Shown one piece after another: positions 42,197 to 60,129 of a DNA stretch of 64,000 nucleotides. The stretch covers positions 5,642,001-5,706,000 of the forward strand of contig NZ_CP107796.1 of assembly GCF_036345995.1 (NCBI RefSeq), read 5' to 3'. A model generated the notes under the pieces. That model saw only the letters and a program-made list of their open reading frames with translations. It was not told where the DNA came from and searched no databases. The stretch's first letter is position 1; every line of letters begins with the position of its first letter. The stretch comes from Streptomyces sp. NBC_00557. Lineage in GTDB: Bacteria > Actinomycetota > Actinomycetes > Streptomycetales > Streptomycetaceae. The translations under genes and the position numbers were made by a program.

Positions 42197-42202
42197 GTTG
42201 GC

Positions 42203-42475
42203 GTGGGGGAGATTGCGACCAACGAGATGACTGCTCAGGAAGCGGGCGGGCAGGCTTCAGCCGGGGCGATGAGTCTGGAGGAGCTGCTGTCTCTTCCGGC
42301 GACGGTCAACGTGACAACTGCTGGGCGAGCCCTTGGCATCGGCCGTGACAAGGCGTACGAGCTGATCCGCAGCGGGTCCTTCCCGGTCCGTACCCTGATG
42401 TTGGGTAGGACGGTACGTGTGCCGACGGCGGAGCTGTGGAAGCTGCTCGGGGTAGACAGACGGCGCGGAGCGTGA
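42203..42475 (+). CDS. Excisionase-like helix-turn-helix protein
   Basis: A product of up to 90 aa. The winged helix reads NVTTAGRALGIGRDKAYELI, SGSFPVRTLMLGRTVRVPTA and ELWKLLGV, typical of MerR-like excisionases in actinomycete integrative elements. It is divergent from the integrase. GTG 42203, ATG 42227 and ATG 42269 are all possible starts; the last leaves only the folded domain. It would direct the integrase toward excision. Confidence 0.78.
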   Translation: MGEIATNEMTAQEAGGQASAGAMSLEELLSLPATVNVTTAGRALGIGRDKAYELIRSGSFPVRTLMLGRTVRVPTAELWKLLGVDRRRGA

Positions 42476-44332: not shown

Positions 44333-44336
44333 CGGG

Positions 44337-44879: not shown

Positions 44880-45125
44880 GTCCTGTCAACTCTGCTGTGT
44901 CGTATGCTCGCCGGAAGGCGACTGGCCAGTGATGAGGTCCTGCCTCTCACCGTACCTCGCAGGTCGGAGGGGTTATAAGGTTTATTGGACAGTTCCTCGG
45001 GGAGCGGTGGCGGGTGCATGGCGGGCGCCGCGGCGTTTCTCGTGCCTGCCTGCCGGCAGGCGTGTACGGGGGAGTTGCAGAGGGCGGGCGGTGGCGGCGC
45101 GCTTGCCGTTCACGGGAGGAATCGC
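44880..45125. other. Intergenic region with divergent promoters
   Basis: About 245 bases. GGTTATAAGGTTTATTGG (about 44970-44987) is the only AT-rich patch and may be a rightward -10 region. A palindrome, GCCTGCCGGCAGGC, lies at about 45045-45059. No gene is supportable. Confidence 0.35.
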
Positions 45126-45299
45126 ATGTCTGGGATAGACGAGCGGCGAGTCGCTGCGCTGGCGAACGCGCCCTCCAAGGTCTTGCGAGGGCGGGGAGGC
45201 GACAGGGCCGCGGAGGAAGCGCGCAAGGTCGTGGAGTGCCAAGCCCTGATGCGCCGGGAGAGGCCAAGCACCAACCCCCAGGAGGGTGGCCATGCTTGA
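45126..45299 (+). CDS. 57-aa protein, unknown
   Basis: ATG 45126 follows GGGAGGAATCGC, a strong ribosome site. The product is basic and helical (GIDERRVAALANAPSKVLRG, EEARKVVECQALMRRERPS) and cytoplasmic. Not recognised. It lies just upstream of an operator-like motif. Confidence 0.5.
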   Translation: MSGIDERRVAALANAPSKVLRGRGGDRAAEEARKVVECQALMRRERPSTNPQEGGHA

Positions 45300-45330
45300 A
45301 CGGCCGCGGCGTCGCCGCCATCACTCCTGA

Positions 45331-45347
45331 AGTAGGTGACATTTTTG
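45331..45347 (+). promoter_or_regulatory. Operator-like motif, fourth forward copy
   Basis: AGTAGGTGACATTTTTG lies about 20 bases before the small frame at 45367. It matches the 27.9-kb copy for TAGGTGACATTTTT. Confidence 0.5.
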
Positions 45348-45366
45348 ATGAGCTGAGGTAAGTTCT

Positions 45367-45537
45367 ATGGCGCCGAGGCGGGTACAGCAGCCGCAGGAAC
45401 CCCGCACGGCAACGTCGCGCAAGCGGCGTCCTTCCCTGCTCCTCGCCGGGTGGCCGAACCCCCCGCGCCCCGCCCGGCGAGGAGCCGGCCGTCCGGTGCG
45501 GCCGTCGGGGTGTGTGACGGGAGCCAGCCCGCCGTGA
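45367..45537 (+). CDS. Possible 56-aa basic peptide
   Basis: ATG 45367 follows GAGGTAAGTTCT and lies under an operator-like motif. The product is Arg/Pro-rich (MAPRRVQQPQEPRTATSRKR at its start) with low complexity. Its stop falls within the first arm of a strong hairpin. It may be a leader or non-coding RNA instead of a protein gene. Confidence 0.3.
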   Translation: MAPRRVQQPQEPRTATSRKRRPSLLLAGWPNPPRPARRGAGRPVRPSGCVTGASPP

Positions 45538-45557
45538 CCGCTCGGTCGCGGCGGGCT
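45526..45557 (+). terminator. Intrinsic terminator upstream of the parB promoter
   Basis: AGCCCGCC (45526-45533) pairs with GGCGGGCT (45550-45557); the inner GTGACCG/CGGTCGC extends the stem. CTCTTGTG follows. It isolates the parB promoter from upstream transcription. Confidence 0.7.
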
Positions 45558-45640
45558 CTCTTGTGTCCGCATCCGCAAGGAACTTAAGAAAGCGAGATCA
45601 ATTCCCTTTCTGAATTCCCTTGAATTAAAGGGGGTTTCAC

Positions 45641-45698
45641 TTGCATTGGTGGTATTTGCCATTAAGATATAAGTGTAAGAACAAGGGGAAACACCCCT
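45641..45698 (+). promoter_or_regulatory. Element promoter with 5' stem-loop for parB
   Basis: TTGCAT (45641-45646), a 16-base spacer, and TAAGAT (45663-45668). The stretch TATTTGCCATTAAGATATAA is identical to the 33.3-kb promoter. The hairpin AGGGG/CCCCT (45684-45698) lies near the transcript start. The upstream 80 bases are AT-rich. Confidence 0.72.
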
Positions 45699-45724
45699 AT
45701 CGGAATACGTGAAAGGCGCGGGAA

Positions 45725-46873
45725 ATGACCGACACTAACAAGGTCGCTTTCATTAACCTCAAGATCAGCGAGATCGCCCCCAACCCGGAGCAGCCCCGCA
45801 AGTTCTTCTCCGAGCAGGCCCAGGAGGAACTGACCGCCAGCATCAAGGAGAACGGCCTCCTCCAGCCGGTCGTCGTCCGGCCGGTCGAGGGTGCCAAGGT
45901 CCCCTACATGCTGATTGCGGGCGAGCGGCGTTGGCGCTCCTGCCAGGCGGCCGGCCTGGAGGTCATCCCGGCCAAGGTCGTCGAGGGCGCCTCCGAAGAG
46001 GAGGCGTACGTGCTGAGCATCGCGGAGAACGTGAACCGCGCCGACATGACAATCATGGAGGAGGCCGGCGCGTACGCCGACCTCAAGGCTGCCGGTTGGA
46101 CCCCGGCGAAGATTGCCAAGCAGTTCGGCAAGACGGAAACCCACATCACGTGGCGGCTCGGCCTGCTCACCCTGCGCCCCGAGGTGGCTGAAATGGTCGA
46201 CAACGGCCAGATCAAGAACAACCTGGCCTGGCACATCGCCCAGCTGAACCCGGCCAACCAGATGGTGGCCGCCATGCGATACGTGCGCGGCGATTTCGAC
46301 AGCGAGGCTGAGGCGCAGCACTTCGCCAATGGCCTCAAGCTGATGGAGCAGCAGACCTCCCTGACCAACGAAACGGCTCCAACGGCCGAGGAGCACGAGA
46401 CGCGGAAGAAGGCCAAGGCCAAGGCGAAGGACGGGCTCGGAAAGGCCGAGGAAGTCCTGATCCCGCTGCTGGAGGAACTGGCCGAGAAGAAGCCCGAGGA
46501 CCTGGCAGTCATCCTCGGCGACGACCTCAGCCGTCACGTGCGCGTCGTCGGCCGCCTGTACGCCAAGGTGCAGATGGTGCGGAACCTGTTGAGCAAGGCG
46601 CAGGGCATCCAGCGGGCCATGGAAGCGGAGTTCAACAAGGCCGCGGTCGAGGTTCAGCGGGAGGCCGCCGCCAAGAAGGCCGAGGCTGAGGCCAAGCCGG
46701 AGACGGCCGAGGTGGAGAAGCCCAAGGCGAAGGATGCGGCCAAGCCGCAGCCGACGGCGAAGAAGACGGCAGCGAAGTCCGCCACCGCGAAGCCCGTGGC
46801 GCCGACGACCGCGACGGCCAAGGCCCCGACGCGCCGGACGGCCGCCAAGAAGGCCGCAGCGGCGGCGAAGTAG
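45725..46873 (+). CDS. parB: ParB-family partition protein with histone-like tail
   Basis: A 382-aa protein. The N-terminal CTP-binding ParB domain is clear: IAPNPEQPRKFF, GLLQPVVVRPVEG, LIAGERRWRSCQAAG (the GERR box) and AENVNRADMTIMEEAGAY. A helix-turn-helix follows (WTPAKIAKQFGKTETHITWR). The last 90 residues are Lys/Ala/Pro-rich, like histone H1. No parA gene is nearby, so it may borrow the host ParA, or it may act as a KorB-like regulator. It suggests that the element can exist as a replicon. The start is ATG after AAAGGCGCGGGAA. Confidence 0.9.
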   Translation: MTDTNKVAFINLKISEIAPNPEQPRKFFSEQAQEELTASIKENGLLQPVVVRPVEGAKVPYMLIAGERRWRSCQAAGLEVIPAKVVEGASEEEAYVLSIAENVNRADMTIMEEAGAYADLKAAGWTPAKIAKQFGKTETHITWRLGLLTLRPEVAEMVDNGQIKNNLAWHIAQLNPANQMVAAMRYVRGDFDSEAEAQHFANGLKLMEQQTSLTNETAPTAEEHETRKKAKAKAKDGLGKAEEVLIPLLEELAEKKPEDLAVILGDDLSRHVRVVGRLYAKVQMVRNLLSKAQGIQRAMEAEFNKAAVEVQREAAAKKAEAEAKPETAEVEKPKAKDAAKPQPTAKKTAAKSATAKPVAPTTATAKAPTRRTAAKKAAAAAK

Positions 46874-46882
46874 CTCCAACGG

Positions 46883-46913
46883 GGAGGGGGCCCGCACTCA
46901 GCGGGCCCCCTCC
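46883..46913 (+). terminator. Strong intrinsic terminator after parB
   Basis: A perfect 13-bp stem, GGAGGGGGCCCGC (46883-46895), with its complement (46901-46913) around ACTCA. Confidence 0.88.
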
Positions 46914-46938
46914 CTGCTGGCGTGTATGGCCCGTCGCC

Positions 46939-47008
46939 GTGCCCGCAGGAGCTGCTCCCCCTGCGGACACGGTGCCGCTCAGGTTCTTTGCGGCCTGAGC
47001 GGGGCACC
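46939..47008 (+). other. Two tandem hairpins before the DUF488-like gene
   Basis: Hairpin 1: CCGCAGG with CCTGCGG (about 46943-46966). Hairpin 2: GGTGCCGCTCAGG (46971-46983) with CCTGAGCGGGGCACC (46994-47008), one bulged base. They lie in the leader of the following gene and could be a structured 5' UTR, an attenuator or a small RNA. Confidence 0.4.
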
Positions 47009-47082
47009 GATGGCATCCGGGCGCGCCGCCGGCGGCGCCGACGAGGGCGCCCGACCGCTGAGCACAGACGAAAGGAAGTTAC

Positions 47083-47496
47083 GTGCTCACTCTGTTCACC
47101 AATCGGTTCCAGGCTTTCCAGCCTCCGCAAGGAGTGCCGGTGCGCATCACGCTGGGCGCCCCCCGCTTCAAACTCCCCTACTCCCTCACCCACTCGGTGC
47201 GGGAGCTCGCGCCGCGTCGGGACTACCTCTCCAGCCCCGAGCCTGAGTTCACCGAGGCCTACCGGGCAGACCTCGATCAGCTCGGACCTGAGCAAATCGC
47301 CGCACGGCTACGGCAGATCACCCAGGCGGAGAGCGACCACCGTCTGGTGCTGCTCTGCTTCGAAGACTTGGCCAAGCCGGGCCTGTGGTGCCACCGCCGG
47401 GTATTCGCCGCCTGGTGGAAGGACGTCACAGGGGACAACGTGCGGGAGCTGTCCCCGATGGAGGACGGCCACTACCAACAGGGAACCTTGATGTGA
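47083..47496 (+). CDS. DUF488-like protein
   Basis: A 137-aa protein. LGAPRFKLPYSLTHSVRELA and LVLLCFEDLAKPGLWCHRRV match DUF488-type proteins; the segment LLCFEDLxxPGxWCHR holds the conserved Cys and His. The family is widespread and often called a predicted nucleotide- or DNA-associated enzyme, without proven activity. The start is GTG after AGGAAGTTAC. Confidence 0.68.
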   Translation: MLTLFTNRFQAFQPPQGVPVRITLGAPRFKLPYSLTHSVRELAPRRDYLSSPEPEFTEAYRADLDQLGPEQIAARLRQITQAESDHRLVLLCFEDLAKPGLWCHRRVFAAWWKDVTGDNVRELSPMEDGHYQQGTLM

Positions 47497-47517
47497 GCGT
47501 CGGAATCGCGCCTAAAA

Positions 47518-47529
47518 GATAGATGACAT
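47518..47529 (+). promoter_or_regulatory. Operator-like motif, variant copy
   Basis: GATAGATGACAT differs from the family word by one base (G to A). It lies in the 131-base gap before the methyltransferase-GNAT gene, which should hold that operon's promoter. Confidence 0.42.
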
Positions 47530-47627
47530 GATTCCAAGGGGCTACGTGCTCCTTGTGTTAGGTTCCAAGCGCAGCGCCCGGCCCGGCCCCGACGAGGCCG
47601 GGCGTTGTCGTACTCGGGAGGCGAGAG

Positions 47628-48962
47628 ATGTTCCAGGGCACCATCCCGGGCCCCATGCGCTCCATCGTGCGTGAGACCGCCAGCCAGTGGCCGGGCGGCC
47701 CAATGTACGTGCCCTGTTGCGGCAACTTCACGATCGAGCGCAGCGTGGCCGGCATGGGCTTCGCCCTGCACTCCTCCGACGTGTCCATCTACACTAGCGC
47801 GGTCGGCCGGTGGCTCACTCGCCAGCCGGTCGGCATCCAGCTCCTTGAGGAGAGCCGAGACAAACTCGGCTGGCTCGCCGACTCCTTGGACGACGGCGTA
47901 GGGACCGTGGCCACGCTCATGCTCGGCACACGGTTTCTCGCCAGCGTCGGCCGCGAGGGGCTGTGGCACGAACGGGTCGTCCGCTCCTACCGAGAGCAGT
48001 GGAAGGCCAAGCACGCGGAGACGATCGAGCGGCTGTCCGGCTCAGACATCGAACTCGCCTCGTACGCGGTGGAGGACGTGCGCTCCTGGCTCCAGAAGAT
48101 CCCCAGCGATGCCCCGGTGTGTTCCTTCCCTCCCTTCTATGGCGGCGGCTACGAGAAGCTGTACGAGCCGCTGGAGGCGCACTTCACCTGGGACGCGCCC
48201 GAGTACGAACCGTTGTCCGACGACGACGTGGTCAGTGTGCTGGGCGCGATCACGGACCGGCCATACTGGCTGACGGCCTCCAATCACGATGTTCCCGAGC
48301 TGCACCGCTACCTACGCGGGGTGATCAAGGCGACGCCGCGCGCCGCCCCGTTCTACGTGTACGCCAGCGAGGCCCGGACGAGGATCGTCGCCCCTCGCCA
48401 GCCGATCGAGCCAGTGAAGGCGCCCCGCCTGCGCCAGGGGGACGAACTGGTCGGCCCGCTGAGCCTGTCACTGCTGAAGCCGGGCCAGTTCAACGCCCTA
48501 CGCTCCCGGTATCTGAACCCGAAGATCGCACCGGGTGCGGCGAACCTGGCCATCGCGGTGAAGGACGGCAAGGGGCGGGTGCTCGGCGTCTTTGCAATGG
48601 CTCCCAGCTCGTACACGCCGGACGAGGCGTACGTGCTCTCGGACTTTGCCGTCGCGCCGACCGACTACCCGCGGCTGTCCAAGCTGATCGTGCTGGCGGC
48701 TACCAGTGCCGAGGCGCAGTTGCTTTGCCAGCGGGCGTTCTCGCGGCGAATCCGGCGGGTGTCCACGACGGCATTCAGCAACAACCCGGTGTCGATGAAG
48801 TACCGCGGGCTGCTGCGGCTGACCAAGCGCGGCCCGTCCAACGAGGACGGCTGGAAGTTCCAGCTCCAGTACCAGGGGGCGATGGGCGAGCACACGCTGG
48901 CCGATGCCCTGCAGATATGGGCGAAGCGGTGGGGCGCCCCGACGACGAAGACGGGAGTCTGA
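47628..48962 (+). CDS. Adenine methyltransferase-like protein fused to a GNAT/Mom-like domain
   Basis: A 444-aa protein. The N-terminal part resembles the putative antirestriction adenine methyltransferases of phages: motif I-like MYVPCCGNFTIERSVAGMGF, an acidic residue in SSDVSIYTSAVGRWL, and a catalytic-type SFPPFYGGGYE (about 166-176) in place of (N/D)PPY. From about residue 270 a second domain looks like an acyl-CoA N-acyltransferase fold (AIAVKDGKGRVLGVFAM, DFAVAPTDYPRLSKLIVLAA, TTAFSNNPVSMKYRGLLRL). Phage Mu Mom, which adds a carbamoylmethyl-type group to adenine, is a GNAT-fold enzyme, so adenine hypermodification is possible. It is coupled to a ParB-like gene two bases downstream. Confidence 0.65.
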   Translation: MFQGTIPGPMRSIVRETASQWPGGPMYVPCCGNFTIERSVAGMGFALHSSDVSIYTSAVGRWLTRQPVGIQLLEESRDKLGWLADSLDDGVGTVATLMLGTRFLASVGREGLWHERVVRSYREQWKAKHAETIERLSGSDIELASYAVEDVRSWLQKIPSDAPVCSFPPFYGGGYEKLYEPLEAHFTWDAPEYEPLSDDDVVSVLGAITDRPYWLTASNHDVPELHRYLRGVIKATPRAAPFYVYASEARTRIVAPRQPIEPVKAPRLRQGDELVGPLSLSLLKPGQFNALRSRYLNPKIAPGAANLAIAVKDGKGRVLGVFAMAPSSYTPDEAYVLSDFAVAPTDYPRLSKLIVLAATSAEAQLLCQRAFSRRIRRVSTTAFSNNPVSMKYRGLLRLTKRGPSNEDGWKFQLQYQGAMGEHTLADALQIWAKRWGAPTTKTGV

Positions 48963-48964
48963 CC

Positions 48965-49867
48965 ATGGAGGAGACCACTCGCCTCGCCCCACCGCAGATG
49001 GTGCAGGGCGACCCGCGCACGCTGACGCTCCTCGACGTGAACGCGCGGTTCCTGCCGCATGAGCAGTTCCGGCAGCTCGTGGCGAACATCGAGCGGGACG
49101 GCTGCCTCACTTCGACGCCGCTGGTGTGGAACGACCGCGAGGCCGGACGGCTGGTCGTGCTGTCGGGCAACCACCGCACGCTCGCCGCCATCGAGGCAGG
49201 CCTCTCGCAGATCTGGTGGATGCAGATAGACGAGCCGTTGCCCCGCCAGCGGCAGATCGCGCTTCAGCTCTCGCACAACGCCATCGCAGGCCAGGATGAT
49301 CCGGCGATCCTCAAGGAGCTGTACGACGAGCTGGAGTCGGTGGAGTGGAGGCAGTACACGGGCCTGGATGACAAGGCTCTGGATCTACTGGAGAAGGTGG
49401 ACGTCGCCTCCTTGGGCGAGGCGAACCTCGACTTCGCCAGCGTGCAGTTCATGTTCCTGCCCAATGAGCTGGAGCGGGCGGAGGCCGCGTTCGACGCGGC
49501 GCGGTCTGCGGCGACGGCGGACCGGCGGTGGATCGCAGGCCTGGAGCAGTACGAGCCAGTGCTTGATGCGCTGGAGACCTCCCGAGCCGCGTACAAGATC
49601 GGCAACAGTGCGACGGCGCTTGGCGTGATCCTCACCGTGTTCGAGCGGCACCTTGGCGAGCTGGCCGAGGGCTGGTTCGACGCGGACTCCGGGGAGCCGA
49701 CCCGGTCGGGAACTGCGCCGTTGGAGGCGGTGTTCGGCGTGCGGGAGATCCCGGTGGAAACAGCGGTGGCCGTACGGACGTTGATCGACCGGTTGGTCAA
49801 AGACGGCATCGTGCCGGCGGCTGAGCCGTGGCGTGCCCTGGATGTGCTGGCAGGGGAGGCGGCGTAG
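48965..49867 (+). CDS. ParB-like nuclease-domain protein
   Basis: A 300-aa protein. The N-terminal ParB/sulfiredoxin-like domain is seen in HEQFRQLVANIERDGCLTST, RLVVLSGNHRTLAAIEAGLS and LQLSHNAIAGQDDPAILKEL. The helix-turn-helix of true ParB proteins is not evident, and the C-terminal half is helical. Such proteins accompany DNA-modifying enzymes in actinophages and may guide or couple the modification using nucleotide hydrolysis. It starts two bases after the methyltransferase stop, so the two act together. Confidence 0.75.
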   Translation: MEETTRLAPPQMVQGDPRTLTLLDVNARFLPHEQFRQLVANIERDGCLTSTPLVWNDREAGRLVVLSGNHRTLAAIEAGLSQIWWMQIDEPLPRQRQIALQLSHNAIAGQDDPAILKELYDELESVEWRQYTGLDDKALDLLEKVDVASLGEANLDFASVQFMFLPNELERAEAAFDAARSAATADRRWIAGLEQYEPVLDALETSRAAYKIGNSATALGVILTVFERHLGELAEGWFDADSGEPTRSGTAPLEAVFGVREIPVETAVAVRTLIDRLVKDGIVPAAEPWRALDVLAGEAA

Positions 49868-49891
49868 GCAGTGGCACCTATGGTGTCGCGA

Positions 49892-51838
49892 TCACATCTC
49901 GTGCGGCGTGATGCGGTTCCCCGGCACCCGGACGACGACTGCCCACCGGCCTCGCTCGTCGGAGGAGGGAGCGGCGACGTGTTCCGCCCACATGCTGTCG
50001 CGAATGTTCGGAATCCAGTCCTTCTTGGGGCGGAGATCAAGGACGACGAGCATGCCCAGGGTGATGCCACTCGCTTGGTAGGCGACGGTCTGGCCGAGGT
50101 AGCGGCGTAGCCCCTTGCGGGTGGTCTTACCCTTGGTCCGCTTGCATTCGATGATGATCGAGAACCCATGGAAGCGGACCTCGATGTCTGCTCGGCCGCC
50201 GCTGCGGTCGGTGAGTTCGATGTCGACGTCTTCGAGGTTGCCGTCCAGGTAGTCCTGCAGGTCTTCTTGGACGGTGTTCTCCTTGGGAAGATCCTCGTCC
50301 GGGCCCGGGGCGTAGAGGTACGCGAAGCGTGGCGTGTGGTGGGCGCGGGCGCGGTTGGTGCGACTGTCCAGGAAGCGGATCGTCTGGGAGACCAGTCGAA
50401 CGGTTCCCTGTCTGATGACGGGGTTGTGGAAGTCGGGGCAGTCGTTGAGGACGGTGAGGATGTCGTTGAAGACGTGTTGCTGCGCGATCGGGAGCCGTGT
50501 GGCCAGGGCTGCTTCGTCGTCTGAGAGGCGGTCTTGGAGGCTCTGGAGCATCTCGGCCGGTAGGCCTGCGAGAACGTGGCTACCGATGATGGCGGCGAGG
50601 TCCGGGTAGGCCGCCTGCGGGGCTTTTCCCGGGGCTCCGAGGGCGGACTGGTGGCTTTGGGCGTGCAGACGTTCGTCGACGGCCTGGAGAAGTTGTCGGG
50701 CAGCGGGGGCGTCCCAGTCCGCTGGCGCTTCGGCGAGGAGGCCGCGCAGGTGGAGCAGCAGGCCTTCACGGCGGGCGAATGCCTCTTCGATGCGTGGGGC
50801 GACCATGACCTGGAGGCCCGCGGCGGCGTTGGCCGGCTGGAGACGCACACTGCGGTGGGCGGTGTAGACGGCGAGGACGTGTTGGATGGTCTGGTTCGGC
50901 CAGGCGGGCAGAGGCTGGTCGAGATGGGCGTCTGTGTGTTCGAGGTCGGCGCTGAGGGCGTACCAGACGGCTTCGGTGTCGTAGCGGCCGGCGCGCCAGT
51001 GAGTGCGGGTACCGCTCAGCCACATGGCGTGTTCGTTGAGCGAGTGGCGGAGCTGTTGTGTAGCGGTGCGCAGAGTGTCGGCGTGGCCGGTGTCGAAGGC
51101 GAGGACGGCTTCAAGGGCGGCGAGATAGGCGGTGGCGTCGGGGCGGTCTTCGTCGGCGTCGACGGCCTGCTGTAGGAGTTCTCGTGCGGCCGAGAATGCG
51201 CCGAGAAGGGTGGCGCGGTCGGGGGCGTTGAAGGCGTCGGCGAGGTGGCACATGGCCAGTTCGTAGACGGCGTCCCCATGGACCGGGCCGCCGACAAAGC
51301 GTTGCAGGGCGCTGAACAGGTCCTGGTCGCGCCAGTGTTCGTAGGCGGTGCCGAGGGAGCGGACGGTGCGGCGGGCGTAGGCAGCCGGTGCGCTGGTGGC
51401 GGTTGGATCGACGAGGCGGTCGAGGACGCCGTAGCGGCGCGTGGTTCCGGGGAGGGCGAGGCGGAGTGCGGCTTCGAGGAAGATGCCGGCGAGTTCTGCG
51501 TCAAGGGGGGTGGCGTGGTGGCGGCTGCGGTCGAGAGCCAGGGCGTTGAGCTCGTTGGCCGCGTACTGGATGTAGCCGGGGTGCTCGACGAGCTGGTCGA
51601 GGATGTCGTCGGCGGCTGCGGGGCTGGTGGTTGTGGCCAGGGCGCGGGTGATGAAGGCGGCGGCTTGATCTGGGTGGGCGAGGGTGTCCCACTCTGCGAG
51701 GAGACTTTCGGCGGCGCGAAACCACAGGGGTGATGCGATCAGGGCGTCGATTTGCCGCCAGAGGGCGTCTTCGCCCCCGAGGGTGGTGAGCGTGGGCGGA
51801 TCACCGTCCTGGGCGAGGAGCGTCTCGAGTGGGGTCAC
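49892..51838 (-). CDS. Effector of a three-gene ABC-ATPase system: helical repeats plus PD-(D/E)XK nuclease
   Basis: A 648-aa protein. About 450 residues are all-helical and repeat-like (AAFITRALATTTSPAAADDI, AYLAALEAVLAFDTGHADTL), perhaps a sensor or scaffold. The last 150 residues hold a restriction-endonuclease fold: GGRADIEVRFHGFSIIIECK gives Asp551, Glu564 and Lys566, followed by the basic helix TRKGLRRYLGQTVAYQ. It is the last gene of a leftward three-gene operon behind the ATPase, the position of the effector in ABC-3C systems. It probably degrades DNA once activated. The start is GTG after GAAAGG. Confidence 0.65.
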   Translation of the reverse strand: MTPLETLLAQDGDPPTLTTLGGEDALWRQIDALIASPLWFRAAESLLAEWDTLAHPDQAAAFITRALATTTSPAAADDILDQLVEHPGYIQYAANELNALALDRSRHHATPLDAELAGIFLEAALRLALPGTTRRYGVLDRLVDPTATSAPAAYARRTVRSLGTAYEHWRDQDLFSALQRFVGGPVHGDAVYELAMCHLADAFNAPDRATLLGAFSAARELLQQAVDADEDRPDATAYLAALEAVLAFDTGHADTLRTATQQLRHSLNEHAMWLSGTRTHWRAGRYDTEAVWYALSADLEHTDAHLDQPLPAWPNQTIQHVLAVYTAHRSVRLQPANAAAGLQVMVAPRIEEAFARREGLLLHLRGLLAEAPADWDAPAARQLLQAVDERLHAQSHQSALGAPGKAPQAAYPDLAAIIGSHVLAGLPAEMLQSLQDRLSDDEAALATRLPIAQQHVFNDILTVLNDCPDFHNPVIRQGTVRLVSQTIRFLDSRTNRARAHHTPRFAYLYAPGPDEDLPKENTVQEDLQDYLDGNLEDVDIELTDRSGGRADIEVRFHGFSIIIECKRTKGKTTRKGLRRYLGQTVAYQASGITLGMLVVLDLRPKKDWIPNIRDSMWAEHVAAPSSDERGRWAVVVRVPGNRITPHEM

Positions 51839-51891
51839 GGTGGGCGGCCTTTCTCGAGGTCGGTGGGCGGTCGGTCACGTTAGCTGAGGGC

Positions 51892-53841
51892 TCACCACAC
51901 GGGTTCGCCCGGGGCTGCGGCGATGAGGCGGTCGGCTGGGATCACGTGAGTGGCGACGTCGCGTTTGGCGGTGGCGGTGATGACTTGTAGGCCGGGTGTT
52001 TCCTCGCAGATGCTCTTGAGCTGGCTGAGGACTTCTGCCAGGTCGACGTCGATTGTTTCCTGGGCGCCGGCCGAGTCCAGCAGAAGGAGACCAGGGTGGC
52101 GGCCCACGCCGGATGACTGGCCGACTCGCAGCAGGGCGAGGAGGGTGGCGATCCGCAGGCGGAGCTGTTCGCCGGGAGTGACGGCGGTGAAGGTGGTCCT
52201 GCTGTCCCCCTTGGTCACGTTCAGGGGGCCGTTGGCCTGCAGCTTGATCTGCTGGAGTTCTTTCATGCCCAGCCGTATGGCCAGACGGCAGATCTCCGCG
52301 CTGACCTCGCCCAGGAGCGCGGCAGAGGCGGCCTTGGTGCGCTTGTCGGCTTCCTTGGCAGCGGCTTCGAGTACGGCTTCCTCCGTGGACTTGGCCCGCG
52401 GCTGCTGTGCGCGGCGCTCGGCGGCACGGCGCTCTTCGAGAGCGCCTTCGAGGCGGGCGACCTCCAAGTGGACCCGGAGTGCTGACTCGGCAGGCATGGC
52501 CGTTTGAGCGACGCTGAGGGCAGTCCGCGCCTCGGTGATCTTGGTCTCGGAGGCAGTGACGGCTGAAACGGCCTGCTGGGCGGCCTTCTTGGCCTTCTGG
52601 TGGGCCTGCTTGAGCGTTTCGATCGAGGCGGCGAGGTCGTCGGCTGCAGAGGAGTCGACGGGCCCCTCGGGGGGCTCCGATCCGCAGATCCGGCAGTGCT
52701 GCTCGCTCAGTTCGGCGTGGGGGAGCTGGTCAAGTGAGGTCGAGCAGCGGGGACAGCAGGTGGGCTTCAGGGCGCCGAAGAAGCGTTGGGCCACGGATGT
52801 CTCGCGCAGGTCTCTCAGCCGGGCCTGGTCCAGGACGAGCGTCTCGTGCAGTTCCTCCTCCGCCTGCTGGGTTTGGTGCATCTCCTGCACCAGGTCGGCG
52901 TGTCGAGCGGTGAGCTCGGCCAAGCGTGCGGCGGCCTGCTCCACCGCATCGGCTGCGGCTTCCAGGCTGGGGCCGGCTTCGGCCTGGGCGGCTGATTCGC
53001 GGGCCCGGGCGAGCTGATTTTCCAGCTGTTCCAACGAGGCACCGCGGGCCTGTAGATCCTGCTGGGCTCGGCGGCGTTCACCTCTCGTCGACTGCTGCAG
53101 CAGATTCAGGGCGGCACCGGCGTCGCGTCGGGTCGTGGTCCAGGGCAGGCCCACGAACATCTGCAAGAGGCTCTGCATGGTCCCGCCGCCGGACGTTTCG
53201 CCCAGAAGTGCGTCGTTTTCGCGGTTGCGGCACAGCAGGGCGTGGCTGAAGGCGGGCCACGAGGTGACGATCACTTGGCCGTCCGGAGACTCGGCGTCGT
53301 TCTCGGCCTGGGCCGCGTTGTCCTTGCGCCAGCCGCGGAGGAATTCCAGTCCCAGGCGATCCATCATGAAGGCGCCCATGACGGACGAGAATTCCGGCTC
53401 TCCGGTGAACGGCGTGATGTGCCGCTGGGTGCCGACCGTCAGAGTGCCGGTCAGTTGATCTCCGGTCGTGTCGACGTAGACCGTGAATGGCTCCTCATCG
53501 ACCTCGGCATCCAGGCTGATTTGGTGGATCCAGTGCCGTACGTCGGCCTGCAGGGCGTCGGAGCCGCGCAGCAGCCACCAGATGATCTCCAGGATGGTGC
53601 TCTTGCCCCGCAGGTTGTCCGCCGTCACGCACCACAGGCCCGGTCCGAGGTCCCAAGAAAAGTCCACAGCCCCGGTCGACTTGCCGGTCTTCTCTCCGGT
53701 GAACGCGATCCTCCGGACAAGTAGCCGATGGGGCTTGGGCAGAATCCCGCTCTCCCTGACCCCGTGACGTGCCAGGATCTCCCCGGCCTGCTCGTCGCTG
53801 ATGCCGGCCTTTCGGGCCACCGCCTGCACGAAGTCGCTCAT
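51892..53841 (-). CDS. SMC/Rad50-like ABC ATPase of a three-gene conflict system
   Basis: A 649-aa protein. The Walker A region is TADNLRGKSTILEIIW (about 73-88). Two coiled-coil arms (about 255-350 and 400-505) flank a zinc-hook-like set, CCPRCSTSL and HCRICG (Cys363, Cys366, Cys383, Cys386). The ABC signature reads TPGEQLRLRIATL (about 555), and Walker B HPGLLLLDSAG. There the usual Asp-Glu pair is Asp-Ser, as in some ABC-3C/DUF3732-type ATPases. It would sense DNA ends or phage intermediates and release the effector. Its start overlaps the preceding stop (ATGA). Confidence 0.78.
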   Translation of the reverse strand: MSDFVQAVARKAGISDEQAGEILARHGVRESGILPKPHRLLVRRIAFTGEKTGKSTGAVDFSWDLGPGLWCVTADNLRGKSTILEIIWWLLRGSDALQADVRHWIHQISLDAEVDEEPFTVYVDTTGDQLTGTLTVGTQRHITPFTGEPEFSSVMGAFMMDRLGLEFLRGWRKDNAAQAENDAESPDGQVIVTSWPAFSHALLCRNRENDALLGETSGGGTMQSLLQMFVGLPWTTTRRDAGAALNLLQQSTRGERRRAQQDLQARGASLEQLENQLARARESAAQAEAGPSLEAAADAVEQAAARLAELTARHADLVQEMHQTQQAEEELHETLVLDQARLRDLRETSVAQRFFGALKPTCCPRCSTSLDQLPHAELSEQHCRICGSEPPEGPVDSSAADDLAASIETLKQAHQKAKKAAQQAVSAVTASETKITEARTALSVAQTAMPAESALRVHLEVARLEGALEERRAAERRAQQPRAKSTEEAVLEAAAKEADKRTKAASAALLGEVSAEICRLAIRLGMKELQQIKLQANGPLNVTKGDSRTTFTAVTPGEQLRLRIATLLALLRVGQSSGVGRHPGLLLLDSAGAQETIDVDLAEVLSQLKSICEETPGLQVITATAKRDVATHVIPADRLIAAAPGEPVW

Positions 53842-54527
53842 TCACTCGCCCCCACCGGCTGTCCCGTGATCCGGGCCAGCCGCTCGCGCACCCGCTCCGT
53901 GATGCCGCTGATGCTGGCCTTCCATACCGTCCGTTCGTACTCGGCCTGCCCGTACTGGATCTCCTTGAGCTGGCTGCCGCTGCGTTGCCCAGCCACGGAG
54001 AGGACGATCGCGGCTCGCTCGTCGTACCAGGCCAGATCCGGGGCGTCGGCGCGCAGTTCGGCAGCCAGGTCGCGGCCGGCGGTCAGGAGGTAGTAGTCCC
54101 ACCGCTCGACCTTGGCCGGAGGCTCGCCAACCGCCTCGACGGCGATCAGGTTGTGTGCGAACAACAGGGCCAGGGCATCGTCCAGCGGTTCCCAGGCCCC
54201 GAAACGCCAGCGGACCATCGGGTACCGGGACACGTCCGGCTCGTCCCCGTCCAGTAGGTCCCTGGCCTGGGTCAGCGCCGACTCCGGGTCCGGTGCCGAA
54301 CCGTTCTCGACCTGGTTGAGCAGCTCGTCGGCGAGGTAGTCAGGGTTGCGGAGCCAGAAGTCCAGTGCCTGCAACCGCTTCTGCCCTCGGATGACCCCGA
54401 CGGCCCCCTGCGGCAGGGCCTGGTCTTCATCGGTTCCGCACGACGCACCGCACCGGTCCAGGACGAACAGCAAGCGAACCGCGTCCTGTACTCGCGACGC
54501 CCGCCGTACCCCTTCCTGCTCTGCCAT
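53838..54527 (-). CDS. Middle component (winged-helix) of the ABC three-component system
   Basis: A 229-aa protein. RLQALDFWLRNPDYLADELL and RWRFGAWEPLDDALALLFAH, with YYLLTAGRDLAAEL, form the winged-helix-like pattern of ABC-3C middle components, which bridge ATPase and effector. It is the first gene of the operon and is coupled to the ATPase by ATGA. ATG 54527 is chosen because the protein then begins at MAEQEGVRRASRVQDAV; an upstream in-frame start at 54584 adds 19 residues without a better ribosome site. Confidence 0.6.
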   Translation of the reverse strand: MAEQEGVRRASRVQDAVRLLFVLDRCGASCGTDEDQALPQGAVGVIRGQKRLQALDFWLRNPDYLADELLNQVENGSAPDPESALTQARDLLDGDEPDVSRYPMVRWRFGAWEPLDDALALLFAHNLIAVEAVGEPPAKVERWDYYLLTAGRDLAAELRADAPDLAWYDERAAIVLSVAGQRSGSQLKEIQYGQAEYERTVWKASISGITERVRERLARITGQPVGASE

Positions 54528-54713
54528 GCCACCCCCGTCGACCGCTGCCTTTGCAACAAACCTGAAGATCCCCACAGATAACACACGGGTGAAGCGTTCC
54601 GTAACCGGTTGAGCACGATTCTTGGGGCAGCCGCCGGATTGCCTGGCCAGAGCTCACCGGAGCCCGAAGATCAGCCTCGGCGCGGTCGGTGAATCTCGCG
54701 CGCGGTTTGCGGG

Positions 54714-55313
54714 TCAACTGGTCTTGTGGCCCCATTTCGGCCCGACCAGGGTCCACTCCCTGTCCCACTGCGCGATGCGTCGCCGGTCGAGCCACCACCG
54801 CCCGGCGCTGCCGATGCCGAAGACCACGCCGCTCAGCGCGAGGGCGGCCGAGCCTCCGAAGAGTGCTGCCTCGACGGCCGCCTCGGTGGGGGGCGTCGGC
54901 TGGGTGCTCAGCTTCCCCTGGCCGTCGATCCAGATACTCACCGTTGAGCCGGCCTTCTTCCCGGTGGTCACCAGCGTCATACCACTGCGCGTGGAGCCGT
55001 CGGAGTTCGTCCAGCGGACCCTTGCCGAGGCAAGATCCCTGCCCATCCCCGAGGTCGCGGGACGCGGGACGTCATCGAGCAGAACGGCGCGGACGGGTAT
55101 CCGGTCGGCCCGCTGCTGGGCGAAGACCTGGTCGGCTGCATGGGCCGTCACCACACCGGCCGCCGTGCCCCCCACCGCGATGAGCACCCATATAGCCAGA
55201 ACGAGCCATGCCTCGAGGATGTCGTCGCGTCGCCGGATCGGGTTGTTCCGCCATCGCCACAGCGGCACCCTCGTTCGTTTGCGCTTCCTGTTCGCGGGCC
55301 TGTCCTCGCGCAT
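54714..55313 (-). CDS. Rv1733c-family membrane protein
   Basis: A 199-aa protein. NNPIRRRDDILEAWLVLAIW begins a first transmembrane helix ending in GGTAAGVVTAHAADQVFAQQ. The outside loop has ARVRWTNSDGSTRSGMTLV and AGSTVSIWIDGQGKLSTQP, and a second helix is ALFGGSAALALSGVVFGIGS. This is the layout of the Rv1733c family. In mycobacteria the family belongs to the DosR hypoxia regulon, and the adjacent block here is of hypoxia type. ATG 55313 follows CGAGGAGGTGCGGAGAG. Confidence 0.8.
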   Translation of the reverse strand: MREDRPANRKRKRTRVPLWRWRNNPIRRRDDILEAWLVLAIWVLIAVGGTAAGVVTAHAADQVFAQQRADRIPVRAVLLDDVPRPATSGMGRDLASARVRWTNSDGSTRSGMTLVTTGKKAGSTVSIWIDGQGKLSTQPTPPTEAAVEAALFGGSAALALSGVVFGIGSAGRWWLDRRRIAQWDREWTLVGPKWGHKTS

Positions 55314-55519
55314 CTCTCCGCACCTCCTCGGCGTCACACACGAAGGTGACAGCCCAGGCGCGCCGTGACATGGGCCGATCAGGCGGAAGCCGAGGGCCGA
55401 TCGGGCCAAGCCCGGGCCGGTGCTGGGCGGTTCGGCCCAGCACACGCACGGGTTGTGGACTCACCGTGGTTCTGTACCCGTGCGTAGTGGGCCAGTGTGC
55501 CCTGCACGGGCCTGGCAAA

Positions 55520-55534
55520 GGGACCATCGGCCCC
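55520..55534. promoter_or_regulatory. DevR/OsdR-like box before the nitroreductase gene
   Basis: GGGACCATCGGCCCC, 75 bases upstream of the ATG, resembles the GGGACC-N3-GGCCC type of DosR/DevR half-site pair. Confidence 0.45.
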
Positions 55535-55609
55535 TCGCCGTTCTGCCGTGGTGCTCTCACGCTCGTAGGACATCCGCACCTGTCTGACTTCGTACGGGAG
55601 GAGGCCATC

Positions 55610-56590
55610 ATGCAAACCGCGCCTCTTGACGCCGCGACCCTGGAAGCTTGCATCTCGGCCGCAGGGGCCGCGCCCTCGATGTACAACACCCAGCCGTGGC
55701 GTTTCCGGCTCGACCCGGAGACCGGCGAGCTGGAGGTACGCGCCGTGCCCGAGCGTGGCCTGCGCCACGCGGATCCTGTAGGCCGGGCTCTGCATCTGTC
55801 TGTCGGTGCCGCTGTCTTCAACCTGCGCGTGGCTGCGGCCCACTTCGGCTGGGCGCCTGTGGTACGCCTGCTGCCGGATCCCGAGGACCCGAGCGTGCTG
55901 GCCAACCTCCGGCTGGCCGGGACGGCCCAGCGGCACACTGCGGGGCACCGCCCCGATCTCTACTCGATGATCTGGCGCAGGCACAGCAGCAGGTTCCCCT
56001 TCTCCGGCAGGCCGCTTCCGCCGAACGTTCGAGTCGAGCTCGCCGATGCCGCTCAAACGGAAGGCGCCACCATGACCTTCCCCGGGCCCACCGAGACGGC
56101 TCGGCTGCTGCGCGTGGTCGCGGCGGCGGAGCGCCGCAACCGCGCCGACCCGGACCGGGCAGTGGAGAGCCGCCGATGGGTACACCGGGATCCAGACGAC
56201 TCTGCCAACGTTGGCATCCCCCAAGCGGCGCTGGGGCTGCAGGACGCGCACGAGAAGCTGCCCATGCGTGACTTCACCGCACAACGGCATCCTGAGCGGC
56301 TCCCAGCCCAGCCCTTCGAGTCCCTGCCGGTGGTTGCCCTGCTGACCACCGAGCACGACCGCCGCAGCGACTGGCTGCGCGCCGGACAGGCGCTGGAGCA
56401 CCACCTGTTGGTGGCCACAGCGCACGGTCTGCGTGCCTCCCTGCTGCACCAGCCGATGGAGTGGCCCGACCTGCGCCGAGATGTGAGCCCCGTGCCGGAC
56501 CTCACCGGGCATGCGCAGATGCTGATTCGCCTCGGGTACGGACCGGAGGGACCGTCCACTCCGAGACGTGCACCGGATCAGGTGTGCTGA
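55610..56590 (+). CDS. Acg-type nitroreductase-family protein
   Basis: A 326-aa flavin-fold protein. AAGAAPSMYNTQPWRFRLDP is the signature N-terminal segment of the Acg/DosR-regulated nitroreductases, and SMIWRRHSSRFPFSGRPLPP, PFESLPVVALLTT and GLRASLLHQPMEW follow. Acg proteins of mycobacteria bind flavin, sequester it, and appear in dormancy. ATG 55610 follows GGGAGGAGG. A DevR-like box lies upstream. Confidence 0.88.
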   Translation: MQTAPLDAATLEACISAAGAAPSMYNTQPWRFRLDPETGELEVRAVPERGLRHADPVGRALHLSVGAAVFNLRVAAAHFGWAPVVRLLPDPEDPSVLANLRLAGTAQRHTAGHRPDLYSMIWRRHSSRFPFSGRPLPPNVRVELADAAQTEGATMTFPGPTETARLLRVVAAAERRNRADPDRAVESRRWVHRDPDDSANVGIPQAALGLQDAHEKLPMRDFTAQRHPERLPAQPFESLPVVALLTTEHDRRSDWLRAGQALEHHLLVATAHGLRASLLHQPMEWPDLRRDVSPVPDLTGHAQMLIRLGYGPEGPSTPRRAPDQVC

Positions 56591-56682
56591 CGCTCAACGA
56601 CCAGGCCGTCTGGGTGGCCGTGATCCTGGGCCCGCGGCCACTCCGAAGGCCCCATGTGGTCGCTGGTTGCGCCCCGGCCTTA

Positions 56683-57072
56683 TCAGCCCGCTGCGGCGGT
56701 GAGGTCCCTGCAGGGCACAGCAGCCATGGCTTCGGGCAGGTGGTCGTAGATCTCGAACACGCCATCCAGCCCCGCACCACGAAGAATTCGAAGGAATTGG
56801 TTGCTGTCAGTGACGACACGCAGCCGGCCGTGCCGTTCCATGACCCTGTTCCGCGCCCGGCACAGCACCCCCAGTCCGGCGCAGTCGATGAAGGACACGG
56901 CGCGAAGGTCCACCACGAGGTCAGGGAGGACGACCGCCGTCAGACCGTCCAGGCGCGCCCCAAGCGACGGTGCCGTGAGGATGTCGATCTCACCGCGCAG
57001 CTCCACGACGGTCGTCCCGTTAGCGGCACGCTCGGTGTGGCGGGGTGCGGAGGTGACGAGGGTTTCGACCAT
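56683..57072 (-). CDS. STAS-domain anti-sigma factor antagonist
   Basis: A 129-aa protein. VVELRGEIDILTAPSLGARL and LVVDLRAVSFIDCAGLGVLC form the STAS fold. At the usual phosphorylation site (DSSG) it reads DCAG, so it cannot be switched by serine phosphorylation in the standard way, a variation seen in many Streptomyces paralogues. It would bind an anti-sigma kinase and free a stress sigma factor. ATG 57072 is chosen; longer in-frame starts exist. It is convergent with the nitroreductase gene. Confidence 0.82.
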   Translation of the reverse strand: MVETLVTSAPRHTERAANGTTVVELRGEIDILTAPSLGARLDGLTAVVLPDLVVDLRAVSFIDCAGLGVLCRARNRVMERHGRLRVVTDSNQFLRILRGAGLDGVFEIYDHLPEAMAAVPCRDLTAAAG

Positions 57073-57108
57073 GGTCCGAGGAAACCCGGGCCGATGGGCG
57101 CGCCGGAA

Positions 57109-57123
57109 GGGCCGTACGGCCCC
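57109..57123. promoter_or_regulatory. DevR/OsdR-like palindrome between the STAS and PPOX genes
   Basis: GGGCCGTACGGCCCC is a near-perfect palindrome in the divergent region, related to the GGGACC-N3-GGCCC boxes of the neighbours. Confidence 0.35.
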
Positions 57124-57249
57124 CCTTCGCCGCCGCGTTTCCTCGGGCCGCTCTCCGGTCAGGGCGGGACCCGTGGCCCTCACCCGAGTCCACTCGCGGT
57201 CTCAGCATGGACTGTGACCCCCTCCACCGGGCGAAAGACGGGCTGACTC

Positions 57250-57690
57250 ATGTACCCGAACGATGGTTTCCGCGAACTCGGTCGTCACGAGTGCCTGCGC
57301 CTGCTGGCGACGGCTCCCATCGGCCGTATCGTCTTCACGCGCCAGGCGCTGCCCGCGGTCGTGCCGGTGAATTTCGGCCTGGACGCCGACGGAGCGGTGC
57401 TGCTGCGCACCTCCACGGCCTCGGAGCTGGCCCGCGCGGTCGACGGCGCGGTCGTCGCCTTCGAGGCGGACGCGGCCGACGTGGAGACGCACTCTGGCTG
57501 GAGTGTCGTCGTGACCGGTCGTGCGGAGATCGTGACGGATCCGGCCGAGGCGGCACGCCTGGAGCGGGTCGGCCTGCACTCCTGGGTTCCCTCGCCCGAG
57601 GAGGTCTTCGTGCGCATCGAGTCTGAACTGGTCACCGGGCGTGAACTCGTTGGCGGCCGCACCGTGTACGGCCTGCACCTCTCCGCCTGA
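57250..57690 (+). CDS. Pyridoxamine 5'-phosphate oxidase-family (PPOX) protein
   Basis: A 146-aa split-barrel protein: RLLATAPIGRIVFTRQALPA, VVPVNFGLDADGAVLLRTS and GWSVVVTGRAEIVTD. These small flavin- or F420-binding proteins are common in mycobacterial and Streptomyces hypoxia regulons. A similar protein lies at 62 kb. ATG 57250 is preceded by AAAGACGGGCTGACTC, so the ribosome site is weak. Substrate unknown. Confidence 0.85.
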   Translation: MYPNDGFRELGRHECLRLLATAPIGRIVFTRQALPAVVPVNFGLDADGAVLLRTSTASELARAVDGAVVAFEADAADVETHSGWSVVVTGRAEIVTDPAEAARLERVGLHSWVPSPEEVFVRIESELVTGRELVGGRTVYGLHLSA

Positions 57691-57715
57691 CCGCTGGGCA
57701 CCACGTGCCCGCGGC

Positions 57716-57733
57716 TTGGACCGAAGGGCCCAA
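57716..57733. promoter_or_regulatory. DevR/OsdR-like box before pflB
   Basis: TTGGACCGAAGGGCCCAA is close to the DosR consensus TTSGGGACTWWAGTCCCSAA in symmetry and ends, 134 bases before the pflB ATG. Confidence 0.5.
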
Positions 57734-57867
57734 CGGTGCGGGGCCGGACGGCGCGGCGACGGGTTCCCGCAGGCCCTGCCCCGCCCAGGGGCGCGTGAGG
57801 ACCATCGTCAGTGGAGCCGCGCACGGAACCGTCCGTGTGCGGTGTCGCGAACGATGCGGAGGCAGTG

Positions 57868-60129
57868 ATGATCGTGGCAACCCGTCCCGACGTGGACGCT
57901 CCCGCCGATGCCTGGCGTGGCTTCGCCGGCCGGGGCTGGCGCGACCGGATCGACGTACGCGACTTCATCCAGGCCAACTACACGCCGTACGAAGGCGGCC
58001 CGGAGTTCCTGACCGGCCCGACCGAGCGCACGCGCGCCGTCTGGCACAAGGTCAGCGCCCTGTTCCCCGAGGAGCGGCGCAAGGGCATCCTCGACGTGGA
58101 CACCGCCACCCCCTCCACGATCACCTCGCACGCCCCCGGCTACATCGACCGGGACCGTGAGCTGATCGTCGGCCTGCAGACCGACGCCCCGCTGAAACGC
58201 GCGATCATGCCCAACGGCGGGCTGCGCATGGTCGAGAACGGCTTGAAGGCGTACGGCTACGAGCCCGACCCGTTCGTCACCAAGGTCTTCGGCACTTACC
58301 GCAAGACCCACAACGACGGCGTCTTCGACGCCTACACCCCGGAGATGCGCGCCGCCCGCAAGGCCGGCGTCATCACCGGACTGCCCGACGCCTACGGCCG
58401 CGGCCGGATCATCGGCGACTACCGGCGCGTCGCTCTGTACGGAACCGACCGCCTGATCCAGGCCAAGAAGGCCGAGCGTGCCCTGCTCGATGCCTGCGCA
58501 TCCTCCACCGAGGTCATCCGTGACCGGGAGGAACTCGCCGAACAGATGAAGGCGTTGGAAGAGCTGACGCGGATGGCGGCGTCGTACGGCTGCGACGTCT
58601 CCCGCCCCGCCGCCACCGCCCAGGAGGCCGTGCAGTGGCTCTACCTCGGCTATCTGGCTGCGGTGAAGGAACAGAACGGCGCGGCCATGTCGCTCGGCCG
58701 CACCTCCACCTTCCTCGACGTCTACCTCCAGCGGGACCTGGCAGACGGGACCATCGACGAGAGGCGGGCCCAGGAGCTGATCGACGACTTCGTGATCAAG
58801 CTGCGGATCGTGCGCTTCCTGCGCACACCCGAGTACGACGCCCTGTTCTCCGGCGACCCGACCTGGGTGACGGAGTCCATCGGCGGCATGGGTGCCGACG
58901 GACGCACCCTGGTCACCCGCAACTCCTTCCGCTTCCTGCAGACCCTCTACAACCTCGGCCCCGCCCCCGAACCCAACCTGACCGTTCTCTGGTCGCCCCG
59001 GCTGCCCGACGGCTTCAAGGAGTTCTGCGCCCAGGTCTCCATCGACACCAGCGCCGTCCAGTACGAGTCCGACGACCTGATGCGCCCACGCACCGGCGAC
59101 GACACCGCCATCGCCTGCTGCGTCTCCGCCATGGCGGTCGGCAAGCAGATGCAGTTCTTCGGCGCCCGCGTCAACCTCGCCAAGGCGCTGCTCTATGCGG
59201 TCAACGGCGGCCGCGACGAGATGACCGGCGAACAGATCGCGCCCGCAGCGCCCCCGCTGACCGGGGAGTATCTCGACTACGAGGAACTGATCGAGGCCTA
59301 CGACCACGTCCTGGACTGGCTGGCCCGGACGTACGTCAACGCGCTCAACGTCATCCACTACATGCACGACAAGTACGCCTACGAACGTCTGGAGATGGCC
59401 CTGCACGACTACCCCGTGCACCGGTTCATGGCCTGCGGGATCGCCGGTCTGTCGGTGGCCGCTGACAGCCTGTCCGCCGTGAAGTACGCACGGGTGAAGG
59501 TGTTCCGGGACGCCACCGGACTCGCCGTCGACTTCCGCACCGAGGGCGACTTCCCGGCGTACGGCAACAACGACGACCGCGCCGACGGCATCGCCGTCGA
59601 CCTGGTGGAGTCCTTCATGGAGAAGGTGCGCCAATACCCCACCTACCGTGGCGCCGAGCACACCCAGTCCGTCCTCACCATCACCTCGAACGTCGTCTAC
59701 GGCAAGCACACCGGCAACACCCCCGACGGCCGCCGCGCCGGACAGCCCTTCGCGCCCGGTGCCAACCCGATGAACGGCCGGGACCGGCACGGTGTCGTCG
59801 CCTCGGCCCTGTCGGTGGCGAAGCTGCCGTACGAGCAGGCCCGCGACGGAATCTCCCTGACCACGACCATCACGCCCGAGGGGCTCGGGCACAACCCCTC
59901 AGAGCGTGCAGGCAACCTGGTCGGCATCCTCGACGGGTACATGACCTTCGGCGGTTTCCACATGAACGTCAACGTCCTGAACCGGGCGACGCTCGAGGAC
60001 GCCATGGAACACCCCGAGAAGTACCCCGAGTTGACGATCCGGGTCTCCGGCTACGCCGTCAACTTCGTCCGTCTCACGCGTGAGCAGCAGCTCGACGTGA
60101 TCAGCCGCACCTTCCACGGGTCGCTGTGA
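57868..60129 (+). CDS. pflB: Formate C-acetyltransferase (pyruvate formate-lyase)
   Basis: A 753-aa glycyl radical enzyme that converts pyruvate and CoA to acetyl-CoA and formate without oxygen. The catalytic Cys417-Cys418 pair lies in [20 protein letters not shown]. The radical glycine, Gly728, lies in [18 protein letters not shown] near the C terminus. Length and cysteine positions match the E. coli enzyme (760 aa, Cys418-Cys419). ATG 57868 has GGAGG five bases upstream. The activase gene overlaps its stop. Such a strictly anaerobic enzyme is unexpected in an aerobic Streptomyces. Confidence 0.96.

What the first reader, a model, noticed from the sequence alone, without database searches (positions are those of the whole stretch)
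49892..54527. Three-gene ABC-ATPase conflict system with an unusual nuclease effector
A leftward operon encodes a winged-helix middle component (229 aa), an SMC/Rad50-like ATPase with zinc-hook cysteines and an Asp-Ser Walker B (649 aa), and a 648-aa effector made of about 450 helical residues plus a C-terminal PD-(D/E)XK nuclease (Asp551, Glu564, Lys566). This is the plan of ABC-3C and Lamassu anti-phage systems. The gene order (middle, ATPase, effector) and the long helical front of the effector do not match the Lamassu forms I know. It sits at the edge of a phage-derived element, a usual place for defence cargo.
Basis: partly seen in the sequence, partly recalled or inferred. Interest (0 to 1): 0.78.

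Follow-up and report, generated by a model that had tools for sequence, protein, structure and literature searches.

The report
Lamassu defence operon with reversed effector
Three neighbouring genes beside an old prophage in a Streptomyces chromosome form a member of the known Lamassu family of anti-phage systems, from a branch whose DNA-cutting effector is built back to front compared with the best-studied ones.

Summary
The three genes are real, intact and under purifying selection. All three match PADLOC Lamassu models over nearly their whole length: effector LmuA PDLC03853 (5e-165), ATPase LmuB PDLC03864 (2e-193), middle protein LmuC PDLC03872 (1e-78). It belongs to a widespread branch in which the order LmuC-LmuB-LmuA is fixed (62 of 62 loci where all three genes were found), whereas 8 of 8 other Streptomyces Lamassu loci read are A-C-B. 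LmuB and LmuC are homologous to those of the A-C-B systems (99.8% and 98.2%), while LmuA is not detectably related. LmuA here has a helical-repeat front and a C-terminal PD-(D/E)XK-type nuclease with D551/E564/K566 kept, the reverse of the N-terminal effector described for Lamassu. In 6 of 63 loci LmuA is two genes, divided near the linker between these parts. The Asp-Ser Walker B is not special: 7 of 8 A-C-B comparators have it. Most likely it works as a DNA-sensing Lamassu complex that unleashes a nuclease. Defence was not tested. Interest is modest.

The parts
53838..54527 (-). LmuC, middle component, 229 aa, winged-helix fold; first gene of the operon
   Evidence: ORF; PDLC03872 1.2e-78; model and fold; 98.2% to A-C-B type LmuC
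51892..53841 (-). LmuB, Rad50/SMC-like ATPase, 649 aa; Walker A K80, CxxC pairs 363/366 and 383/386, Walker B D589-S590
   Evidence: PDLC03864 1.9e-193; Rad50 3aux_A 2.3e-4
49892..51838 (-). LmuA, effector, 648 aa: helices 1-395 (repeat-like to about 305), disordered linker 396-408, helices 412-534, nuclease 537-640
   Evidence: (PDLC03853 5.1e-165)
49916..50230 (-). C-terminal PD-(D/E)XK-type nuclease domain of LmuA (about residues 537-641; D551, E564, K566, Q583, Y587)
   Evidence: sub-threshold Pfam Mrr_cat; no fold search of this domain alone
45725..49867 (+). right end of the prophage core (ParB-like, DUF488, Dam-like/GNAT, ParB-like); DNA homology to sister elements stops at 49842-49851

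Best explanation
A Lamassu anti-phage (possibly also anti-plasmid) operon of the PADLOC PDLC03853/03864/03872 branch. LmuB dimers with LmuC form the DNA-sensing, Rad50-like core. LmuA docks on it through its N-terminal helical-repeat part, which keeps the C-terminal nuclease off. When the core meets phage or plasmid DNA structures such as ends or hairpins, LmuA is let go or rearranged, its nuclease parts come together, and they cut DNA, stopping the infection at the cost of the cell. Shown here: the genes, their order, homology of LmuB and LmuC to other Lamassu, conserved ATP-binding and nuclease residues, the two-part build of LmuA with natural divisions near the linker. Inferred from other Lamassu: complex, trigger, release and killing. 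Inferred here only from anatomy: that the helical front is the docking and inhibiting part.
Confidence: 0.75

Rival explanations
1. The helical-repeat front of LmuA is itself a sensor (for a phage protein or peptide), not a docking and inhibiting part; LmuB/LmuC only scaffold it.
For: TPR/HEAT-like arrangement is common in protein- and peptide-binding modules (general knowledge). In L037, L040 and L047 the front scores 1e-7 to 1e-12 and the nuclease part 1e-33 to 1e-35.
Against: In two other split loci the front scores better than the nuclease part (L021 2e-39 against 8e-32, L033 2e-38 against 1e-30). Fast change would also fit an interface that tracks LmuB/LmuC. LmuB and LmuC, the presumed DNA-sensing core of Lamassu, are kept.
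Confidence: 0.15
2. The operon is mainly an anti-plasmid or replicon-maintenance system of linear Streptomyces replicons rather than anti-phage.
For: LmuB-like sequences (E up to 1e-5, any branch) are on 35 of 72,556 plasmids, 25 of the 35 from Streptomyces; G150 carries two copies near both ends of its chromosome; PMC10482375 (passages) reports 31% of Streptomyces Lamassu in the first or last 1% of the chromosome.
Against: The window copy lies in the chromosome interior beside a prophage (5.69 of 8.68 Mb); two IMG/VR contigs carry LmuB of this kind (not read further). A type II Lamassu protected E. coli against phages (PMC8565338, passages); whether that system is of this branch was not checked.
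Confidence: 0.2
3. The Lamassu genes came as cargo of the prophage itself and protect it from rival phages.
For: The LmuA stop codon lies 24 bp from the end of the last prophage gene (convergent); sister elements (same genome at 89%, G006, G030) share DNA up to 49842-49851 and then differ from the window.
Against: In sister elements L118 and L119 terminase genes and then portal and head genes follow at this point, and none of these is found in the window, so the window prophage looks cut off here and the Lamassu may be an independent insertion or the old chromosomal flank. No attachment repeat was found and no phage record holds LmuA (0 of 50,697).
Confidence: 0.25
4. The divided effectors are assembly errors or pseudogenes and say nothing about modularity.
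For: L024 is clearly decayed (four pieces), L022 is incomplete at a contig end and L026 has lost the nuclease part. In L033 and L040 the two ORFs overlap in different frames, so a frameshift cannot be excluded for each locus singly.
Against: Six loci are divided in the same region with both ORFs open and the nuclease residues kept; five of them, with decayed L024, form one LmuB clade with SH-aLRT 100.
Confidence: 0.1

Closest known systems
PADLOC-DB Lamassu models PDLC03853 (LmuA), PDLC03864 (LmuB), PDLC03872 (LmuC)
   Same: All three window proteins match over nearly full length at 1e-78 to 1e-193, and so do 10 of 10 proteins scanned from 6 other loci of the branch
   Different: Nothing at the level of the models; PADLOC gives no description of the effector
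Type II Lamassu / DdmABC (Cap4-type), here the A-C-B loci L123-L128, L130, L131 of Streptomyces
   Same: Homologous LmuB and LmuC, paired CxxC motifs in LmuB, three genes; Asp-Ser Walker B in 7 of 8
   Different: Order A-C-B against C-B-A; their effector has the enzymatic domain first (DUF4297/Cap4-like in L123), here it is last and the proteins are not detectably homologous
ABC-3C systems (named in PMC10586767 as part of the Lamassu superfamily)
   Same: ATPase, middle component, effector
   Different: No ABC-3C Pfam model matched LmuA or LmuC at E up to 1 (that Pfam holds such models is recalled)
Rad50
   Same: Head domain by profile (3aux_A 2.3e-4) and cysteines in the middle of the coiled-coil stretch
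   Different: Two CxxC pairs per chain, short coiled coils, Asp-Ser Walker B; no Mre11-like partner among the three genes (Rad50 features recalled)

Membership tests
Lamassu | SMC/Rad50-like ATPase LmuB, about 650 aa | tested here: met
   PDLC03864 1.9e-193; homologous to A-C-B type LmuB 99.8%; 649 aa
Lamassu | LmuC middle component (type II) | tested here: met
   PDLC03872 1.2e-78; 98.2% to A-C-B type LmuC
Lamassu | LmuA effector with an enzymatic domain, linked to LmuB | tested here: met
   PDLC03853 5.1e-165; nuclease residues in 59 of 60 rows; next to LmuB in 62 of 62 loci with all three genes
Lamassu | Typical, not defining: effector domain at the N-terminus, docking domain at the C-terminus (PMC10586767 section 8) | tested here: not met
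   Nuclease is C-terminal, helical part N-terminal
Lamassu | Typical, not defining: gene order A-C-B | tested here: not met
   C-B-A in 62 of 62; A-C-B in 8 of 8 other-branch loci read
Lamassu | Anti-phage or anti-plasmid activity needing ATP binding and effector | not testable with these tools
   No experiment possible
ABC-3C (Pfam MC and CTD families) | Match to Pfam ABC-3C middle-component or C-terminal-domain models | tested here: not met
   No such family at E up to 1 for LmuA or LmuC; existence of the models recalled
PD-(D/E)XK nuclease superfamily | D...(D/E)xK on neighbouring strands of a beta-beta-beta-alpha-beta core | tested here: met
   In the predicted model D551 on strand 548-556, E564/K566 on strand 559-568, helix 578-586, strand 594-601
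PD-(D/E)XK nuclease superfamily | Fold match of the isolated domain to a solved nuclease | not tested
Wadjet | JetABCD set | tested here: not met
   Only a JetC model at 0.11 for LmuB, none for the other two at E up to 1

The most novel reading that the evidence does not exclude
This branch of Lamassu has swapped the effector logic: an unrelated effector, joined the other way round (solenoid front, nuclease tail) and placed at the other end of the operon, works on the same LmuB-LmuC core. Since in some proteobacteria the two halves are separate genes, the solenoid would be a stand-alone adaptor that couples the DNA sensor to a nuclease acting in trans, so effector release by whole-LmuA tetramerisation would not be the general Lamassu mechanism.
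Probability: 0.4. Interest if true: 0.5.

Novelty: new member of a known kind. Interest (0 to 1): 0.3.

Why it matters
The branch offers a natural experiment on how Lamassu effectors are controlled: the sensor core is kept while the effector is unrelated, reversed and sometimes divided into two genes. It would show whether docking and killing are separable. For the genome itself it is an ordinary, already catalogued defence operon.

Tried and rejected
Asp-Ser Walker B as a special mark of this system: rejected, 7 of 8 A-C-B Lamassu loci have it, L130 has Asp-Gly. NCBIfam and Pfam gave no family above cut-off for the three proteins; the TOM20_plant hit is sub-threshold and read as a sign of TPR-like repeats only. 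PDB by sequence: no hit at E up to 1 for the LmuA profile, nothing meaningful for single sequences. Foldseek of LmuC and of LmuA gave no match at E under 0.001. That other Lamassu chains are not listed among fold matches is no evidence. tRNA scan of the window, Rfam scan of 44000-58000 and promoter/terminator scan of 49700-54900 gave nothing above chance. No direct repeat that could be an attachment site. Lamassu as a phage-genome gene: LmuA in 0 of 50,697 phage records. Papers: Li (NSMB), Haudiquet, Robins 2024, Krishnan 2020 and Millman 2022 are not held (the last two DOIs were recalled); one search tried a further recalled DOI, also not held; the Li M preprint cited in PMC12409362 was not looked up. 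So whether the reversed or divided effector is in print could not be settled. Papers seen: PMC10586767 (passages and section 8), PMC8565338, PMC12904381, PMC12409362, PMC12799240, PMC10482375 (passages only).

Rows dropped: of the 68 loci, 6 lack one of the genes (L018, L034, L065, L066: contig ends or broken; L067, L068: fragments) and are not in the 62; the 62 include loci with a divided, decayed or contig-cut gene. Near-duplicate or fragmentary loci (19 ids) were left out of the neighbour tally, and 140 of 179 neighbour proteins picked by my own ORF caller (110-900 aa, up to two a side) were scanned. Of the 9 Streptomyces genomes with only weaker LmuB matches, 8 were read (G248 was not fetched); L123/L125 and L126/L128 are near-copies, so the 8 are about 6 independent. 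Their genes were named by PADLOC for L123 and L131 only, by alignment or near-identity for the rest. G285 has a strong LmuA match with one TGA counted (the window's own LmuA is also listed with one) and no LmuB match at 1e-20; G082, G279, G109 and G143 have LmuA C-terminal pieces only.

Full report
What is there. LmuC and LmuB overlap by four bases. The window is G000:C1:5642001-5706000 of a genome rated 100% complete, with one LmuB match at E up to 0.001. That it is a Streptomyces is inferred from the nearest LmuB rows.

What family. PADLOC identifies all three over nearly their full length as LmuA, LmuB and LmuC. Pfam and NCBIfam have no family above cut-off for them. The same three PADLOC models also hit remote members of the branch (10 of 10 proteins scanned, from 6 loci).

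How far it spreads. A pattern-based scan of one genome per species (84,980) with an LmuB alignment returned 68 loci from actinobacteria, alpha-, beta- and gammaproteobacteria, acidobacteria, planctomycetes and a myxobacterium (a lower bound). In 62 of 68 all three genes were found, and in each of these 62 the order is C-B-A on one strand; some of the 62 have a divided, decayed or contig-cut gene. LmuC ends in ATGA, GTGA or TTGA in 57 of 62, as expected for a four-base overlap with the next start, though the starts were not verified one by one. In 295 sampled Streptomyces genomes the branch (LmuB E below 1e-170) is in 12 genomes with 14 loci, and a strong LmuA lies directly downstream in 14 of 14 (read from coordinates). 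One further genome (G285) has a strong LmuA match without LmuB at 1e-20, and four have only C-terminal LmuA pieces.

How it compares with the usual Lamassu. Eight other LmuB loci from Streptomyces were read, about six of them independent: all 8 are A-C-B, with effectors such as the DUF4297/Cap4-like LmuA of L123. Profile comparison against six of them gives 99.8% for LmuB, 98.2% for LmuC and 0.1% for LmuA. So the sensor core is shared and the effector is not detectably related. The effector here is also the other way round: the review PMC10586767 (section 8) places the enzymatic domain of LmuA at the N-terminus and a docking part at the C-terminus.

Is it alive? dN/dS against five to six relatives is 0.07-0.29 for the three genes, with one saturated pair.

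Surroundings. To the left is a prophage: tape measure, endolysin and two integrase-type genes match PHROGs, then a cluster of ParB-like, DUF488 and Dam-like genes. The same genome holds a sister copy of this right end at 89% identity, about 98 kb away, and G006 and G030 hold others. DNA homology stops at 49842-49851 in each, 41-50 bp before the LmuA stop codon. In two of the sisters (L118, L119) terminase genes follow, then portal and head genes; none of these is found in the window. The window prophage therefore seems truncated where the Lamassu begins. To the right, 54713-56563 matches DNA of G007, and parts of it G022; neither has LmuB of this family at 1e-20. Whether the Lamassu came with the prophage or separately is open. 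Among 140 sampled neighbour proteins in the branch are integrases, transposase-type proteins, conjugation proteins and other defence families, none in more than 3 of 140, so no fixed fourth component was seen.

Mechanism. The best-supported view is a Lamassu: an LmuB-LmuC core that senses aberrant DNA and unleashes LmuA. Release and tetramerisation of LmuA are reported for the Cap4 type (PMC12409362 addendum, passage; the primary papers were not held). Because the effector here is unrelated, only the outline carries over. The front as docking and inhibiting part is an inference from anatomy and from the natural divisions.

Verdict. It is an intact member of a catalogued Lamassu branch. The reversed and sometimes divided effector is the part worth a specialist's time; whether it has been described could not be checked in the papers held.

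Noticed in passing
G000:C1:5587614-5593466 (L118, L122): The genome carries a sister copy of the prophage right end at 89% identity, about 98 kb from the window copy (start to start), followed by terminase, portal and head genes; the window copy lacks these.
   Followed up: partly
window 12969-17237, 20823-22025, 40180-42222, 42579-43568: Prophage genes by PHROGs: tape measure, endolysin and two different integrase-type genes close together.
   Followed up: partly
L129 (G161:C15), 6850-8892: A second LmuB-like gene of another Lamassu branch (PDLC03862 7.6e-65) sits 360 bp after the C-B-A operon, with no LmuC of its own noticed.
   Followed up: no
G150:C1 37240-39297, 8067092-8069149, 2473911-2475890: Three C-B-A type LmuB/LmuA pairs in one Streptomyces genome, two at mirror positions near both ends of the chromosome, which would fit terminal inverted repeats.
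   Followed up: no
L130 (G094:C1), 8219-11899: Two Cap4-like effector ORFs lie before LmuC and LmuB; Walker B there is Asp-Gly.
   Followed up: no
P0020 (1105 aa): A single metagenome protein joins LmuB residues 222-635 to LmuA from residue 1 in one frame; its tail departs from LmuA after residue 513, so it may be a sequencing artefact.
   Followed up: partly
L024 10290-11849, L026 4653-6080: Decayed effectors: L024 LmuA is in four pieces, L026 LmuA stops before the nuclease while its LmuB and LmuC ORFs look full length.
   Followed up: partly
window 45725-49867: Two ParB-like genes flank a DUF488 gene and a Dam-like/GNAT gene; the last three of these recur in sister prophages and their role is unknown.
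   Followed up: no
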